DNA of 64,000 nt from an uncultured Deferribacteraceae bacterium (lineage in GTDB: Bacteria; Chrysiogenota; Deferribacteres; Deferribacterales; Mucispirillaceae): contig CAMRCY010000008.1 of the NCBI GenBank assembly GCA_947041165.1, forward strand, positions 1 to 64,000, given 5' to 3'. Below are positions 49,326-55,992 of the stretch, piece by piece. A program made the translations under genes and the position numbers. Positions within the stretch are counted from its first letter, which is position 1, and each line of letters opens with the position of its first letter. Under the pieces are notes generated by a model, which was not told the origin of the DNA, did not search any database, and worked only from the letters and a program-made list of their open reading frames with translations.

Positions 49326-49357
49326 AAACTGTTTAGTTACACAGTAGATATCAAACA

Positions 49358-49429
49358 ATACAAATAGTAAAAAACTATGCAAATAGCAAAACTACGCAAA
49401 TAGTATAAAAATATGCAAATAGCAAAACT
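49358..49429 (+). repeat. 17-19-bp tandem repeat between leuC and leuD
   Basis: Four imperfect units (49358, 49377, 49394, 49413), two of them identical: ATGCAAATAGCAAAACT. It fills half of the leuC-leuD gap. Confidence 0.75.
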
Positions 49430-49474
49430 GCACATATTGATACTATTTTTTATGTTAAGGGAGATTAAATAATT

Positions 49475-50065
49475 ATGTTAACAGTTATAAAAGAGATAAA
49501 AGGAAAAGGTTTACCACTTAGAGGAGATGATATCGATACCGATAGAATTATCCCTGCTAGGTTTTTAATATCAACAACGTTTGAGGGTTTAGGCGATAGT
49601 GCGTTCTGTGATGAAAGATTTTCACCTGACGGCACACCAACTAATCACCCTATGAACGACAAGAAATTTAACGGTTCAACTATTATAATAACGAATAATA
49701 ATTTCGGTTGTGGATCATCAAGAGAGCACGCTCCACAAGCTATTAAGAGAGCTGGATATAACCTTATATTAGCAGAATCTTTTGCTGAAATATTTTACGG
49801 TAACTCATCTGTGTTAGGTTTAGTTTGTATTACGCTTGATAAAAATAATATTGAAACTATTTTAAAAAGTATTGAAACAAATCCAGATACAGAGATTAGT
49901 ATGGATATAGAAAAATCAGAGTTATCTGTTGCAGGCACGGTTTATAAAGTTGAGTTAAAAGATGCGTTAAAATCATCGTTATTAAATGGAAGCTATGACA
50001 CGATCGCAGAACTTGCATCAAATAAAGATGAAGTTAAAACATTTGAAAAGAATTTACCGTATTAA
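49475..50065 (+). CDS. leuD: 3-isopropylmalate dehydratase small subunit
   Basis: 196 residues. GDDIDTDRIIPARFL, NNFGCGSSREHAPQAIKRAG and ILAESFAEIFYGNS are the family hallmarks of the swivelling domain that completes the LeuC active site. AAGGGAG precedes the ATG. It ends before a strong terminator. Confidence 0.96.
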   Translation: MLTVIKEIKGKGLPLRGDDIDTDRIIPARFLISTTFEGLGDSAFCDERFSPDGTPTNHPMNDKKFNGSTIIITNNNFGCGSSREHAPQAIKRAGYNLILAESFAEIFYGNSSVLGLVCITLDKNNIETILKSIETNPDTEISMDIEKSELSVAGTVYKVELKDALKSSLLNGSYDTIAELASNKDEVKTFEKNLPY

Positions 50066-50104
50066 GTAGAAATACATAGTTTAAAATTTTCATAAATTAT
50101 AAAG

Positions 50105-50139
50105 GTGGTTAGATCGATAAAAATCTAGCCACTTTTTTT
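50105..50139 (+). terminator. Terminator after leuD, left edge of accessory segment
   Basis: GTGGTTAGAT (50105-50114) pairs with ATCTAGCCAC (50123-50132), then T7. It is a near copy of the terminator at 54618-54655. Confidence 0.9.
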
Positions 50140-50203
50140 ATGATTACAATTGTCATTATAAATAGACAAAACAACTTAATTGTATATACTTGTTTATTAA
50201 TAG
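50130..50203 (+). repeat. 74-bp direct repeat A (terminator end plus leader)
   Basis: Matches 52377-52450 at all but about eight positions; both copies begin ACTTTTTTTATGATTA and contain TTAATTGTATATACTTG. Copy A precedes the pentapeptide gene, copy B the DUF262 gene, so the block may carry their promoter. Confidence 0.85.
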
Positions 50204-50220
50204 AATATAGAGAGGCAACA

Positions 50221-51153
50221 ATGCAAGCACTCACATATATAGGTATTGTTTTAGCAATAATTTCTGTTATTTTTGGAATGATTTCTATTTGCTGGGCAAA
50301 AATGTCTATTTCTTTTATCAAGGTAAATATAGATGCTATTAAAAATCAAAATGATAACGCGATAAGATCAGAACGTAATGAGAGATTTAAAGATGCAATC
50401 GAGCAACTTGGCGACGAAAAAAATGCTATAGCTTTAGGTGGAATATACACACTTCACAGAATAGCTAAAGAAGATGAAAGCTATAGAGAAAATGTGTTTA
50501 ATATTTTATGTTCATTTGTTAGGGATGTTACAATAACAGGTGAGTATCAAGCGAAATATACCGATAAACCATCTGAACCGATACAAACAATATTAAATAT
50601 ACTTTGCAGAAATAAAAACGATTTTAAAATATATAAAAAGTACCGAATAAATTTTTCAAATGCGAATCTTATAGGTGTCAATTTAATGGACGCTAACCTT
50701 GTAGATGCTAGTATATTCAAGGCTAATCTCACAAGTGCTCTCATATCGTACTCCAATCTTACAAATGCTTTCATATCATATGCGAATCTTACAGCAGCTT
50801 ACTTAGATGAGTCTAATCTTACAAAAACTAACCTAGCAAGTGCTAATTTCACAGGGAGTAATTTAGAAAGGGCGAATCTTGCAGGAGCTAACTTGACAGG
50901 GGCTGATCTTACAAGAGCGAAGTTAGAGGGTACTAATTTAAAAGGGGCTAATTCTTGCATGGAGATTACCTTTACTCCAATATCATTTGGAAAATATATT
51001 ATAGATGGTATCGGCAAACCAACTAACTTAAGTGGTATCGAAGGTGGCTACGATGAAAATAATAAACCATACACAGGCAAGCCGTTAACTGGTAGTTATA
51101 CCAAAGAAGAAGCGAAACAAATGATAGAAGATTATAAAAATAATCTAAAATAA
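50221..51153 (+). CDS. Membrane-anchored pentapeptide-repeat protein
   Basis: 310 residues. An N-terminal membrane helix (about 2-24), a helical linker, then a conserved segment (ERFKDAIEQLGDEKNAIALG, GIYTLHRIAKEDESYRENVF) seen before pentapeptide repeats in other bacteria. Residues about 143-252 are some 20 pentapeptides of A(N/D)Lxx type (ANLIGVNLMDANLVDASIFK), forming a right-handed quadrilateral beta-helix. Such helices can mimic DNA or serve as scaffolds; the target here is unknown. AGAGG at 50211-50215 sets the ATG, which excludes a longer frame from 50140 running through the repeat block. Confidence 0.85.
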   Translation: MQALTYIGIVLAIISVIFGMISICWAKMSISFIKVNIDAIKNQNDNAIRSERNERFKDAIEQLGDEKNAIALGGIYTLHRIAKEDESYRENVFNILCSFVRDVTITGEYQAKYTDKPSEPIQTILNILCRNKNDFKIYKKYRINFSNANLIGVNLMDANLVDASIFKANLTSALISYSNLTNAFISYANLTAAYLDESNLTKTNLASANFTGSNLERANLAGANLTGADLTRAKLEGTNLKGANSCMEITFTPISFGKYIIDGIGKPTNLSGIEGGYDENNKPYTGKPLTGSYTKEEAKQMIEDYKNNLK

Positions 51154-51264
51154 ATAAAAAAATCAATCATAGAGGAGCATTTTATCAAAACACAAGAAGC
51201 TTGGGAAAAATATAATAATTATCCGATAATTTACATTACTATTATTTATACTGGTATCTATTTT

Positions 51265-52278
51265 TTGATACAACTACTTTATGATAATAGGATATTGGCT
51301 TTTGAGTCTATGCCTATAGTTATAACTACATTGGAAACAGCTTTAATCGGTGTCATAATATGTATTTTTACAAAAACTGAGATCACTAAAGGGATTATCA
51401 GCGGTGCAACATTTGGTTTTATAGGTGCTAGTGGAAATTATCTTATCGCTATTGACTCATTTGGACCAACTATGCAAATTTCTAATATTATCTACGCCCC
51501 ACTGCTTGGTGTTTTCGTGAGCGTGCTTATTAAATCTAATGTTGTGAAGGGTGCTATATATGGCATTATCTACAGCATTACTCTTTATATAATTTTTACT
51601 GTTTACTTCTCCGGTATCGGCACTCATAAGTACGGTTTATTACTCAACTATATAATAGACATTATATATAATTCAAGCTATTTTATTAGTAACTTATTTT
51701 TCAGTATTTTAACAAATACTTTATTTAGTATTTTCATAGGTATGCTTATAAATCATAAAGGAGTATACATAATTAGAAGTATTCTTGGTGGCGTTATCTA
51801 TGGGGTGGCAACTTATAGTGTTCACTCGGTTTCATCTAATATTATGAATATGAACAATATTCTTGCATGCGTACTACATGTAAATTATTTATTTTTTATA
51901 TTGTATCCACTTACCCTACAAAAAACCGATGCTGTTACGACTATGACATATAATGACAGTACAGATAAAGATAGTACCTATACGACGACGACTAATTCTA
52001 ACTCTTCTGTTGAACGAGATCAGGTGTTTAGGAAAGGTAGTAAAAAGTGGTTATATGTAATTTACCATACGTTAATCGGAGCTATTATAGGTATTATTAT
52101 CGTTTATATTTTAATGATGATAAACCCTAATGGCGGTGGACCTTTCGGATTTTTTACAGATCTGGAATTCTTTTTCGAACTGATTGTCGCTGTTGTTTAT
52201 GGCGGTAGTGGTGGCGGTATACTTGGCTTTATGATAGGGATATTAAGTTCTCAGAAAAATAAAAAAGATCCCCTTTAA
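51265..52278 (+). CDS. Multi-pass membrane protein of unknown function (start uncertain)
   Basis: At least 337 residues and about eight membrane helices, with a Ser/Thr/Asn/Asp-rich loop (about 217-255) before the last two. No family recognised. The first conventional start is TTG 51265, but it has no ribosome binding site and cuts the first helix. The frame is open upstream through a sensible N-terminus (KTQEAWEKYNNYPIIYITII) to a strong GAGGAG at 51172-51177, where the codon at the right spacing is ATC (51184). It follows the pentapeptide gene and is probably its operon partner. Confidence 0.65.
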   Translation: MIQLLYDNRILAFESMPIVITTLETALIGVIICIFTKTEITKGIISGATFGFIGASGNYLIAIDSFGPTMQISNIIYAPLLGVFVSVLIKSNVVKGAIYGIIYSITLYIIFTVYFSGIGTHKYGLLLNYIIDIIYNSSYFISNLFFSILTNTLFSIFIGMLINHKGVYIIRSILGGVIYGVATYSVHSVSSNIMNMNNILACVLHVNYLFFILYPLTLQKTDAVTTMTYNDSTDKDSTYTTTTNSNSSVERDQVFRKGSKKWLYVIYHTLIGAIIGIIIVYILMMINPNGGGPFGFFTDLEFFFELIVAVVYGGSGGGILGFMIGILSSQKNKKDPL

Positions 52279-52376
52279 AACTTTTAACTAAATAAATATA
52301 ACCTACCAAGTGACTATCTTTACACTAAGATAATTGATACAAAATATTCGTTAAATTAACTCACACAGATCCAGTG

Positions 52377-52450
52377 ACTTTTTTTATGATTATAATTGTT
52401 ATAATAAATAGACAAATTAACTTAATTGTATATACTTGATTATTAGTAAG
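52377..52450 (+). repeat. 74-bp direct repeat B
   Basis: Copy of 50130-50203. A reduced terminator-like stem (TCAC 52361-52364 with GTGA 52374-52377) and T-run open it. It lies 60 bp before the DUF262 gene. Confidence 0.85.
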
Positions 52451-52511
52451 TAAAAAATAAAAAATGGTTAAACAAGTTTTAAAATATTTTAATTTATAAT
52501 GGAGTTTTTAT

Positions 52512-54572
52512 ATGAGAGCAGAAGATATAGATCTACATGAGTTTTTTACATCAGGCAGAAACTATATTATCCCTGTATATCAAAGAAATTATGATTGGAA
52601 AAAAGAAAATTGCCAAAAACTACTTCAAGATATTATAAAAGCAGAAACAGATGATCTTCCTGAATATTTTTTAGGTTCAATTGTTATCACATTAAAAGGT
52701 AAATTTAATTATAATGAATATTTTATTATTGATGGACAACAACGACTCACAACTATAACACTTTTGTTATTAGCAATTTATCACAATGATTCGGAAGTAG
52801 CAAAAGGATCAAGACCTAACGTAGAAAGACTTATTTTTTATAATATTCAAGATAAAGAAAAAAGATTAATATTGAAACAAATACAAAAAGATGATGAGTT
52901 CTTATCAAAGATAATCAAAGAAGATGAGATAACAGATGATAACTCTAATATTATAAATAATTATTTATATTTCCAAAATGAAATTACAAATAATCCAGCA
53001 ATTATCCCCATTATCATGAGTGGATTTAATAGATTGAGAATAGTTCAAATTAGTTTAAATGAAAAAAACGATAACCCTCAATTAGTTTTTGAAACTCTTA
53101 ATGCAACTGGCAAGGGATTAAGTGAAGCAGATAAAATTCGTAATTATATTTTAATGTATAAAAATCAAGAAAAACTATATGAAGATTATTGGGTAAAAAT
53201 AGAAGAAAATTGTTTGCAAAAATATAATGAGAATAATGTTTCTGCATTTATAAAATGTTTTTTAACAGTTGAATATATCAACAAAATAAACACACCAATT
53301 AAAGATGACAAAGTTTATACTGTGTTTAAAGAGTATTTAGAAAACAGGGATAATGAAGAAATTTTAAAACTAATGCTTGATTATTCAAAAAACTATAATT
53401 TAATACTAAGTCCTACTGAAGATAGTAAAGATATAATAGTTGCATCTATTCATCGTATAAGAAAGAATCTTAATGTAACTGTTTTAGATTCTCTACTACT
53501 ATATATTTTGAAACAAAATCAGGATAAAAACATTTCAAATGATGGTACTTTTCAGATGATATTTTTGCTAGAGAATTATCTTATTCGTCGTGCTATATGC
53601 TCCATTACAAATAACGGACTCAATACAATAGTTGTTTCCATAATAAAAAAAATTGTCAACCAATCTGCTGAAGAGAAAACAAAAGAAACCCTTGAAAAGC
53701 TACTATTTCTAAAAGGTAATGGATTATCTCTCACAAATGAGTCTATTATTGAAAGTTTGAAAACTAAAAAACTATACAATAGTAACACTCGGGTATTAGG
53801 ATATTTTTTGTTAAAACAATTAGAAACACTTAATAACAAAGAAAAAAATTCCTTTGAAGGTATTTCAATTGAACATATTATGCCACGAACATTAACAGAT
53901 CAATGGAAAATAGAATTAGGTGATGAACATCAATTAGTTTATGATACTTACTTACATACGCTTGGCAATATAACATTAACTGGCTATAACTCTGAACTAA
54001 GCAATAAACCATTTGATTATAAAAAAATGGAAATATTAAAAACATCTAAATTTGTTTTTCTTAATAAAGAAATATCTACTGTTCCTAACTGGACAAAAGA
54101 AGCTATATTGGAACGTACTCACAGGTTAGCAAACGCATTATTAGAGATGTACCCTTACCCCAAAAATCTAAATGTAGAATATAAAGATAATATTGGAAAT
54201 ATAAACATCACAGAAGATATAGATTGTGACTTTAGCTCAAAAGAAATTTTAGAATATGAATATAACGGTAAAAACTATCAAGTTTCAGATAAGAATTGGT
54301 CTTCTTTTATGGTCGAATTACTTGGTAAAATATATGAAGAAGATACAGTGAAATTCAATGCTCGCATCATTGAAAACTCAAGCTTTTCTGATAAAATAAA
54401 GCATGAATGTTTTGACAAAGAATATATTCATAATAAGTGTTATAATGCAGGCAATGGGAAAGTCTTATATTTTAATACAGTACAAGATACAAACTCTAAA
54501 ATTCGTTTAATAATTTCTATTATTGAAATCTTAGAGATTGACACTTCCATTATAATAAAAATAAATTACTAG
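52512..54572 (+). CDS. DUF262/DUF1524 protein, GmrSD-like restriction nuclease
   Basis: 686 residues. The DUF262 (ParB-like NTP-binding) domain has IPVYQRNYDW (20-29), IDGQQRLTT (73-81) and FETLNATGKGLSEADKIRNY. The DUF1524 HNH-like nuclease domain has SIEHIMPRTL (about 450-460), then HTLGNITLTGYNSELSNKPF. A C-terminal region of about 110 residues follows that I do not recognise. GmrSD-type enzymes are type IV restriction systems that cut modified (e.g. glucosylated) phage DNA; single-chain forms like this are common. Target inferred. No methyltransferase is adjacent, as expected for type IV. Confidence 0.85.
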   Translation: MRAEDIDLHEFFTSGRNYIIPVYQRNYDWKKENCQKLLQDIIKAETDDLPEYFLGSIVITLKGKFNYNEYFIIDGQQRLTTITLLLLAIYHNDSEVAKGSRPNVERLIFYNIQDKEKRLILKQIQKDDEFLSKIIKEDEITDDNSNIINNYLYFQNEITNNPAIIPIIMSGFNRLRIVQISLNEKNDNPQLVFETLNATGKGLSEADKIRNYILMYKNQEKLYEDYWVKIEENCLQKYNENNVSAFIKCFLTVEYINKINTPIKDDKVYTVFKEYLENRDNEEILKLMLDYSKNYNLILSPTEDSKDIIVASIHRIRKNLNVTVLDSLLLYILKQNQDKNISNDGTFQMIFLLENYLIRRAICSITNNGLNTIVVSIIKKIVNQSAEEKTKETLEKLLFLKGNGLSLTNESIIESLKTKKLYNSNTRVLGYFLLKQLETLNNKEKNSFEGISIEHIMPRTLTDQWKIELGDEHQLVYDTYLHTLGNITLTGYNSELSNKPFDYKKMEILKTSKFVFLNKEISTVPNWTKEAILERTHRLANALLEMYPYPKNLNVEYKDNIGNINITEDIDCDFSSKEILEYEYNGKNYQVSDKNWSSFMVELLGKIYEEDTVKFNARIIENSSFSDKIKHECFDKEYIHNKCYNAGNGKVLYFNTVQDTNSKIRLIISIIEILEIDTSIIIKINY

Positions 54573-54617
54573 AGATTTAACCCAATAAAATTATGTTTTC
54601 TTATATTGCAAATAGTT

Positions 54618-54655
54618 GTGGTTAGATCGGTTAAAAATCTAACCACTTTTTTTTT
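54618..54655 (+). terminator. Terminator closing the accessory segment
   Basis: A perfect 10-bp stem, GTGGTTAGAT / ATCTAACCAC with a 9-nt loop, then T9. It differs at only a few positions from 50105-50139. Confidence 0.9.
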
Positions 54656-54684
54656 GCGATTATTCTTATAATCCTAACAAACTC

Positions 54685-55992
54685 TTACTTACTACTTTCG
54701 ATGTATTCAACAACTTTTTTTGCGATTATTCTTAAATTTTTCTCAAAAATCTCTATATCTTTTTCAAGTAACACAACTCTAAAACCTTGCATAGGTGAAA
54801 AGAATGATGTGAGTGGAACAAGGCATATGCCTGTTGATCCTAATAAATTATATGTGAAACGTTTGTCGTTCTCGGCACTAACATTTAATTTACTATCTAT
54901 AAACTCTCTGATTTTTGGATCTTTAATCTCTAAAAATTGTCTAGCATTCATGAGTGGCTCTTCAAAAACAACTGTGATATAAAATGCACCGTTAGGTTTG
55001 TTTACTCTAACATATGGAACATCTTTTAAAATATCGTAAGCAAGCGTTGCCACTTTTTCATAATATTTAACTCGCTCCTCTAAATAAGCTTGATACTCTT
55101 GATGTTCAAGAATTTTAGGTATAGCCATTTGTGGAATTGTTGTTGAACAAACTTCAGCCATTTTAAGTTGAAATATCATATTTATATATCTATCAAAATC
55201 TGGATCTTTTCCAGAATTATAAACCTCTATCCAGCCACATCTGCCACCTGGCCAAGGGACTTCTTTAGATAACGATTTCATAGATATACCTTTTACGTTC
55301 TCACCGATTATATCGCTTAGATATGGAGTAGTGTAACCGTTGTAAATCATATTGTGATATAGCTCATCAAACATTAAAAACAGATCGTACTTTTCAGCGA
55401 TCGCTACAATCTTACGTAAACTCTCTTCTGAATATACATATCCAGTCGGATTATCAGGATTGACAACTAATATACCAACGATAGATTTATGACTTTTAAC
55501 TTTACGTTCAAGATCATCTAAATCAGGTTCCCAATTATTATGAGGATCAAGTCTATATGTGTTAGGTGGAAATGATGAGTGCATAACCTCTGCCATAAAA
55601 TGGGTAGAGTATGTAGGCTCAGGCATGATCACCCTTGCATCAACTCTCATAGATGAGTAACATCTAGCGATAGCATCACCTAAACCGTTAAAGAAAATAA
55701 TGTCGTCTTTATCGATCTGAGCTCCACCACGTCTGTTATTAACGTCAGCTAAATATCTTCTAGTAGACTCAATACCACGAGTTGGTGAATATGCAAAAGA
55801 TTTATCATCATCGATAACCTCTTTTATAACATCTTTCATCCATGTTGGAATAATTTCTCCCTTTGCAACTGGGTCACCAGTATTTTCAAATGAGATCTCC
55901 ATACCAAGTGATGCAAGATAATTTGCAATTTCAGCAATGTTTCGTATCTCATAAGTTAATCCACTTCCCGTAACGGCAAAATCACTTCTCAT
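54685..55992 (-). CDS. PLP-dependent aminotransferase (fold type I, class I/II)
   Basis: 435 residues. Cofactor-binding motifs are NPDNPTGYVYSEESL, FDELYHNMIYNG and SLSKEVPWPGGRCGW, the last holding the Schiff-base Lys, with Arg nearby for the carboxylate. The N-terminal FAYSPTRGIESTRRYLADVN is typical of aspartate/alanine-type enzymes. Substrate unresolved. AGAGGA precedes the ATG. The 3' end contains a T-rich segment (54713-54734) repeated beside the terminator at 54645-54668. Confidence 0.9.
   Translation of the reverse strand: MRSDFAVTGSGLTYEIRNIAEIANYLASLGMEISFENTGDPVAKGEIIPTWMKDVIKEVIDDDKSFAYSPTRGIESTRRYLADVNNRRGGAQIDKDDIIFFNGLGDAIARCYSSMRVDARVIMPEPTYSTHFMAEVMHSSFPPNTYRLDPHNNWEPDLDDLERKVKSHKSIVGILVVNPDNPTGYVYSEESLRKIVAIAEKYDLFLMFDELYHNMIYNGYTTPYLSDIIGENVKGISMKSLSKEVPWPGGRCGWIEVYNSGKDPDFDRYINMIFQLKMAEVCSTTIPQMAIPKILEHQEYQAYLEERVKYYEKVATLAYDILKDVPYVRVNKPNGAFYITVVFEEPLMNARQFLEIKDPKIREFIDSKLNVSAENDKRFTYNLLGSTGICLVPLTSFFSPMQGFRVVLLEKDIEIFEKNLRIIAKKVVEYIESSK

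What the first reader, a model, noticed from the sequence alone, without database searches (positions are those of the whole stretch)
50105..54655. Cassette-like accessory segment bounded by near-identical terminators
Between leuD and the aminotransferase lie a pentapeptide-repeat protein, a membrane protein and a GmrSD-like nuclease. The flanking terminators (50105-50139, 54618-54655) are near copies. A 74-bp block that includes the terminator T-run plus leader occurs at 50130-50203 and again at 52377-52450, so the segment parses as [terminator-leader][pentapeptide + membrane protein][terminator-leader][nuclease][terminator]. Homologous recombination between such terminator blocks could add or remove modules at this spot without mobile-element genes. 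If so, this is a defence/accessory hotspot using terminators as the homology.
Basis: partly seen in the sequence, partly recalled or inferred. Interest (0 to 1): 0.65.

Follow-up and report, generated by a model that had tools for sequence, protein, structure and literature searches.

The report
Hybrid cargo locus fused at terminator T-run
Next to the leuD gene in a poorly known group of bacteria lies a patch of optional genes, and in this genome two versions of the patch appear to have been spliced together at an 11-letter match in a transcription terminator's tail: a clear but ordinary case of gene shuffling between related bacteria.

Summary
The repeats are real and confined to this locus, and the cargo is variable. 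Among four same-genus genomes the leuD–aminotransferase interval carries PPR only (G003), PPR+membrane protein (G001), membrane protein with the PPR side unassembled (G002), or PPR+membrane protein+GmrSD nuclease (G000). The middle "terminator" is not one: it does not fold, and left of its T-run the sequence is native to the membrane-protein allele (39/40 identical to G002, 14/40 to the leuD terminator). Right of it lies a second copy of the PPR leader (53/60 to copy 1, 22/60 to G002). The 74-bp block is a junction product; only ACTTTTTTTAT (11 bp) was shared. The membrane-protein side is 98.1% identical to G002 against 87–93% around it, ending exactly at the T-run. Best reading: two alleles of one hotspot were fused at a T-run, probably by homology at one end and microhomology at the other (HFIR-like). 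The nuclease's right edge also lies at a T-run, followed by a 20-bp copy of the aminotransferase end. A well-resolved example of a known kind; a dedicated terminator-based cassette mechanism is not shown.

The parts
49475..50065 (+). leuD (3-isopropylmalate dehydratase small subunit), left core flank
   Evidence: PF00694; 95% aa identity in G001 and G003
50101..50139 (+). T1, intrinsic terminator of leuD, 14-bp stem plus T7
   Evidence: conserved in G001 and G003 with 0 mismatches to the pattern
50131..50141 (+). ACTTTTTTTAT, T1 tail; the sequence shared with the joint at 52377
   Evidence: ACTTTTTTT occurs only four times in the 64-kb window, both strands
50142..50220 (+). Leader copy 1: PPR promoter-like sites (TAGACA-16-TATACT at 50163-50190) and ribosome-binding site
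   Evidence: leader conserved in G001 and G003
50221..51153 (+). Pentapeptide-repeat protein (PPR) with N-terminal hydrophobic segment
   Evidence: PF00805 3.8e-22; N-terminal 144 aa 82%/76% identical in G001/G003, at this locus only
51184..52278 (+). Membrane protein (MEM), no family hit; probable AUC start at 51184
   Evidence: 96% aa in G002, 50-53% in G001, not found in G003
52377..52387 (+). Left joint: ACTTTTTTTAT where the MEM allele (native up to here in G002) meets leader copy 2
52388..52459 (+). Leader copy 2 (TAGACA-16-TATACT at 52409-52436), now in front of the nuclease; closer to G001/G003 leaders than to copy 1
52512..54572 (+). Single-chain GmrSD-type (DUF262+DUF1524) nuclease, 686 aa, 25.8% GC, DGQQR and HNH-region motifs present
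   Evidence: no match in G001, G002 or G003
54618..54656 (+). T3, terminator-like hairpin behind the nuclease, near copy of T1
54645..54674 (+). Right joint: T3 T-run followed by a 20-nt exact copy (TTTTTTTGCGATTATTCTTA) of the aminotransferase 3' end
   Evidence: longest match 20 nt; 5000 shuffles reach at most 17
54685..55992 (-). PLP aminotransferase (PRK06855 family), right core flank
   Evidence: NF005334 4.3e-198; 95-96% aa in all three congeners

Best explanation
The leuD-aminotransferase interval is a small variable-cargo locus in this genus of Deferribacteraceae, and the version in this genome is a hybrid of two alleles. One is leuD-T-P-PPR-MEM, nearly the same as in congener G002 where that can be compared. 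The other is inferred: leuD-T-P-nuclease-T3-aminotransferase. They were fused at 11 bp (ACTTTTTTTAT) shared by a T-run 3' of MEM and by the T-run of the second allele's leuD terminator. The joining most likely happened when related DNA entered the cell: ordinary homologous recombination at one end (leuD/leader or aminotransferase) and microhomology joining at the other (HFIR-like). Each cargo unit is left with a leader and, for the nuclease, a terminator. Shown: the junction, the identity step, the cargo variation. Inferred: the nuclease allele, the direction of transfer, the HFIR route.
For: G000-G002 identity is 98.1% over 51163-52387, noncoding tail included, and ends exactly at the T-run; it resumes at 54679 at 93.0% (Fisher p 2.5e-13); upstream background is 87-89%. 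Between the same points G002 has 224 bp and no nuclease, G000 2291 bp. Left of the T-run block 2 matches G002 39/40 and copy 1 14/40; right of it, copy 1 53/60 and G002 22/60. An overlap of 11 bp or more at a random junction has P about 2e-5 in this window. Leader copy 2 differs from the G001/G003 leaders at 3-4 of 49 sites but from copy 1 at 6, with four sites placing it with them against copy 1 and none the other way, so it looks like another allele rather than a recent local copy. MEM is 96% identical to G002 and 50-53% to G001 while the aminotransferase is equidistant (95-96%), so alleles have been exchanged. ComEC and DprA are present. HFIR joints in transformable bacteria mostly carry 3-10 bp microhomology (PMC3240628).
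Against: The donor allele leuD-T-P-nuclease was not found; only four species genomes of the genus are held, all in many contigs, at least two of them metagenome bins. The left end of the exchanged segment cannot be placed because G002 is unassembled between window 48913 and 51163. Copies 1 and 2 share a 12-13 nt stretch that G001/G003 lack, which a local duplication explains as well. Why T3 resembles T1 is not explained by this single event. ComEC and DprA also occur in bacteria not known for transformation (control genomes include E. coli).
Confidence: 0.66

Rival explanations
1. Local duplication: the T-run plus leader of PPR was copied within one genome (slippage or template switching) together with capture of a nuclease gene from elsewhere between two T-runs, without a pre-existing nuclease allele at this locus.
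For: Copies 1 and 2 share ATGATTAYAATTG, which G001/G003 lack. Both nuclease edges lie at ACTTTTTTT runs, and the right one carries a templated-looking 20-nt aminotransferase copy. The nuclease has lower GC (25.8%) than its neighbours (31-37%).
Against: Leader copy 2 is nearer to the leaders of other species than to copy 1; the 88% identity of the two copies is low for a recent copy, while the adjoining MEM side is 98% identical to G002.
Confidence: 0.19
2. Terminator-mediated cassette exchange: terminator blocks are the regular homology by which modules are added and removed at this site.
For: All four ACTTTTTTT sites in the 64-kb window lie at edges within this interval (T1, left joint, T3, aminotransferase end). 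Both edges of the nuclease module are T-runs. T1 and T3 are near copies not found elsewhere in the genome.
Against: Only one genome shows it. No hairpin stem at the middle site. The MEM presence/absence difference between G001 and G003 has no T-run edge. No repeated block in G001 or G003.
Confidence: 0.1
3. Assembly artefact: the contig joins two strain variants of the same locus present in the sampled community.
For: The two named congeners are metagenome bins, and G002 breaks in this very interval.
Against: The left joint has 11 bp of shared sequence, and the longest exact run shared by copies 1 and 2 (read by eye) is about 20 nt, both short for a k-mer join. The product is a neat leader-gene-hairpin order on a 70.9-kb contig.
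Confidence: 0.05

Closest known systems
[quoted passage not shown] 2017, PMC5635113)
   Same: Variable accessory genes between conserved core genes, no integrase or transposase, sign of exchange between lineages.
   Different: Seen here in four species genomes, not a population; one joint is resolved to 11 bp and lies inside the interval at a T-run rather than in a core gene.
Homology-facilitated illegitimate recombination (S. pneumoniae, A. baylyi, P. stutzeri; summarised in PMC3240628)
   Same: One end can be long homology, the other a short microhomology; insertion coupled with loss of native sequence (2291 bp in place of 224 bp).
   Different: 11 bp is just above the usual 3-10 bp; transformation in this organism is unproven; the junction is inferred from comparison, not observed.
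V. cholerae T6SS immunity-gene arrays built by sequential insertion of modules (PMC5361080)
   Same: A new module is added while an old gene is kept beside it; a conserved flank serves as anchor; the authors propose an HFIR-like mechanism.
   Different: Here whole leader-gene(-terminator) units and a nuclease instead of effector-immunity pairs; only one addition is seen.
Integron gene cassettes
   Same: Units in one direction, some ending in a hairpin (from general knowledge).
   Different: No integrase in the interval, no attC family, junction in a T-run, three genes only, own leaders.

Membership tests
Accessory-gene hotspot between core genes without mobile elements (Oliveira 2017 sense) | Same flanking core genes, different cargo in relatives | tested here: met
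   PPR only, PPR+MEM, PPR+MEM+nuclease between the same leuD and aminotransferase
Accessory-gene hotspot between core genes without mobile elements (Oliveira 2017 sense) | No integrase, transposase or other mobility gene in the interval | tested here: met
   Pfam, PADLOC and NCBIfam give only pentapeptide, GmrSD-type or no hit
[quoted passage not shown]
   Identity step 98% to 93% across the joint, but no population sample for a recombination rate
Homology-facilitated illegitimate recombination product | Microhomology at one joint | tested here: met
   11 bp ACTTTTTTTAT, with abrupt loss of identity on either side
Homology-facilitated illegitimate recombination product | Long homology at the other joint | tested here: inconclusive
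   leuD/leader or aminotransferase would serve; the left end of the exchanged segment falls in the unassembled part of G002
Homology-facilitated illegitimate recombination product | Naturally transformable host | tested here: inconclusive
   ComEC and DprA present; not specific to transformable species
Integron cassette array | Integron integrase and attC recombination sites | tested here: not met
   No integrase-like gene in the interval; the hairpin occurs only at this locus. Rest of the genome not searched for an integrase.
GmrSD-type (DUF262/DUF1524) type IV restriction enzyme | GmrSD_N and GmrSD_C domains in one chain, with DGQQR and HNH-region motifs | tested here: met
   PF03235 129 bits, PF07510 80 bits; IIDGQQRLTTI and SIEHIMPRT...LGNITL in the translation; weak sequence match to SspE
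GmrSD-type (DUF262/DUF1524) type IV restriction enzyme | Cleavage of modified phage DNA | not testable with these tools
   No assay possible; best PADLOC hits are to families named Orf5 and HEC-06

The most novel reading that the evidence does not exclude
In this AT-rich genus, terminator tails (ACTTTTTTT) are recurrent, preferred crossover points, so that cargo units at leuD, each made of leader, gene and terminator, are strung together or deleted without any recombinase, the terminator shielding the neighbour's transcription at every step.
Probability: 0.1. Interest if true: 0.55.

Novelty: new member of a known kind. Interest (0 to 1): 0.32.

Why it matters
It gives a base-pair-resolved example of how accessory genes, among them a defence-like nuclease, can be stacked at a core-gene site without mobile-element genes, through a short match in a terminator tail that leaves the added unit with its own leader and terminator. 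Hotspots without integrases are common (PMC5635113). It also shows that a repeated 'terminator-leader block' can be the footprint of a joint rather than its cause.

Tried and rejected
Common intergenic repeat: rejected, the block and the hairpin match only here. The leader pattern, scanned over the genome collection of about 85,000 species, occurs only in two congeners at the same locus and not in viral contigs. The GATCCAGTGACTTTTTTAT motif as a genome-wide repeat: rejected, two loose matches in the genome. DNA-uptake-type terminator hairpin: rejected for the same reason. Finding the nuclease's donor: no close relative; the best plasmid and phage matches are 31-35%, the viral-contig scan gave none, and the own-genome paralogue on C34 is 33%. 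Prophage, plasmid or integron cargo: no mobility gene in the interval. Literature on terminator T-run microhomology in gene gain: the search gave nothing pertinent. The detailed route to the right joint (20-nt aminotransferase copy, then return about 66 bp upstream) stays unexplained; template switching fits but was not tested.

Full report
Observation. Between leuD (49475-50065) and a convergent PLP aminotransferase (54685-55992, minus strand) lie a pentapeptide-repeat protein (PPR), a membrane protein (MEM) and a 686-aa GmrSD-type nuclease. The two flanking hairpins, T1 (50101-50139) and T3 (54618-54656), are near copies and fold well. Searched over the whole 2.14-Mb genome, the block and the hairpin match only here. 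It is absent from viral contigs.

What the relatives show. Four genomes of the genus are held. leuD (where assembled) and the aminotransferase are 95-96% identical in protein, but the interval differs. G003 has T-leader-PPR-other terminator. G001 has T-leader-PPR-MEM-other terminator. G002, whose contig starts at the PPR/MEM border, has MEM and a native spacer. Only G000 has the nuclease. MEM of G000 is 96% identical to G002 but 50-53% to G001, although the aminotransferase is equidistant from all, so alleles of this cargo have been exchanged between lineages. PPR and MEM were found nowhere else in the family.

The joint. G000 and G002 are 98.1% identical from 51163 to 52387 and then diverge abruptly; identity resumes at 54679 at 93.0%. 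The difference between the two sides is significant (Fisher p 2.5e-13), and the upstream background is 87-89%. Position 52387 is the end of ACTTTTTTTAT. The 40 nt left of that sequence match G002 at 39 and the leuD terminator at 14. The 60 nt right of it match the leuD leader at 53 and G002 at 22. So the 'terminator' half of block 2 belongs to the native 3' end of the MEM allele, which does not fold (z -0.11), and only the leader is repeated. The shared sequence at the joint is 11 bp, an overlap expected at about 2 in 100,000 random joints in this window. The leader carries the same sigma-70-like sites, TAGACA-16-TATACT, in both copies. Such consensus matches are not proof of a promoter: the region as a whole holds about as many promoter-like sites as its shuffles.

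Origin of leader copy 2. Over 49 gap-free sites it differs from the G001 and G003 leaders at 3 and 4 sites and from copy 1 at 6; four sites group it with them against copy 1 and none do the reverse. It looks like another allele of the same leader, though a 12-13 nt stretch common to copies 1 and 2 and missing from G001/G003 leaves a local duplication possible.

Right edge. T3's T-run is followed by TTTTTTTGCGATTATTCTTA, an exact 20-nt copy of the aminotransferase 3' end 66 bp further on; 5000 shuffles give at most 17. ACTTTTTTT occurs four times in the window, both strands, and all four lie at edges in this interval. This is the best hint that T-runs guided more than one event, but it is one genome.

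Mechanism. The simplest account is that two alleles of one locus were fused. A PPR-MEM allele like G002's and an inferred T-leader-nuclease allele met at the T-run of the latter's leuD terminator. One end would be ordinary homology; the other, microhomology. This is the pattern called homology-facilitated illegitimate recombination, with joints mostly of 3-10 bp (PMC3240628), and it resembles the module stacking proposed for V. cholerae T6SS arrays (PMC5361080). ComEC and DprA are present but are not specific to transformable bacteria. The donor allele, the direction and the uptake route are inferred, not shown.

Hotspot without mobile-element genes: supported, and of a known kind (PMC5635113). 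Terminator blocks as the homology: not supported in that form; the block is the footprint of the joint, and the hairpin played no visible part at the middle site. Defence: one gene only. It has GmrSD_N and GmrSD_C domains and PADLOC hits, and no close relative was found in plasmids, phages or viral contigs.

Caveats. Four genomes in many contigs, at least two of them metagenome bins; G002 is unassembled exactly between leuC and MEM. Read-level support for the joint could not be checked.

Noticed in passing
51151-51265: The membrane protein has no ATG, GTG or TTG between the PPR stop and about codon 27 of its conserved N-terminus; a GAGGAG ribosome-binding site stands 6 nt before ATC (51184) in G000, likewise in G002, and before ATA in G001. 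Translation from AUC/AUA is likely.
   Followed up: partly
49353-49448: The leuC-leuD spacer holds two 36-nt direct repeats (86% alike) and an inverted partner; about 90 bp here has no counterpart in G001.
   Followed up: no
L048 7200-7460 (G002:C62): G002's MEM-aminotransferase spacer has three to four degenerate copies of GATCCAGTGACTTTTTTAT; traces stand at the same place in G001 and G003.
   Followed up: partly
G000:C34:15294-17096: A second GmrSD-type nuclease in the same genome, 33% identical; the block and hairpin do not occur there.
   Followed up: no
G014:C151:693-2379: A GmrSD-type relative in a sister genus appears broken by stop codons and a frame change.
   Followed up: no
50650-50950: The pentapeptide part of PPR diverges strongly between congeners (about 60% DNA identity, large length differences) while its N-terminal part stays mostly near 80-90%.
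   Followed up: partly
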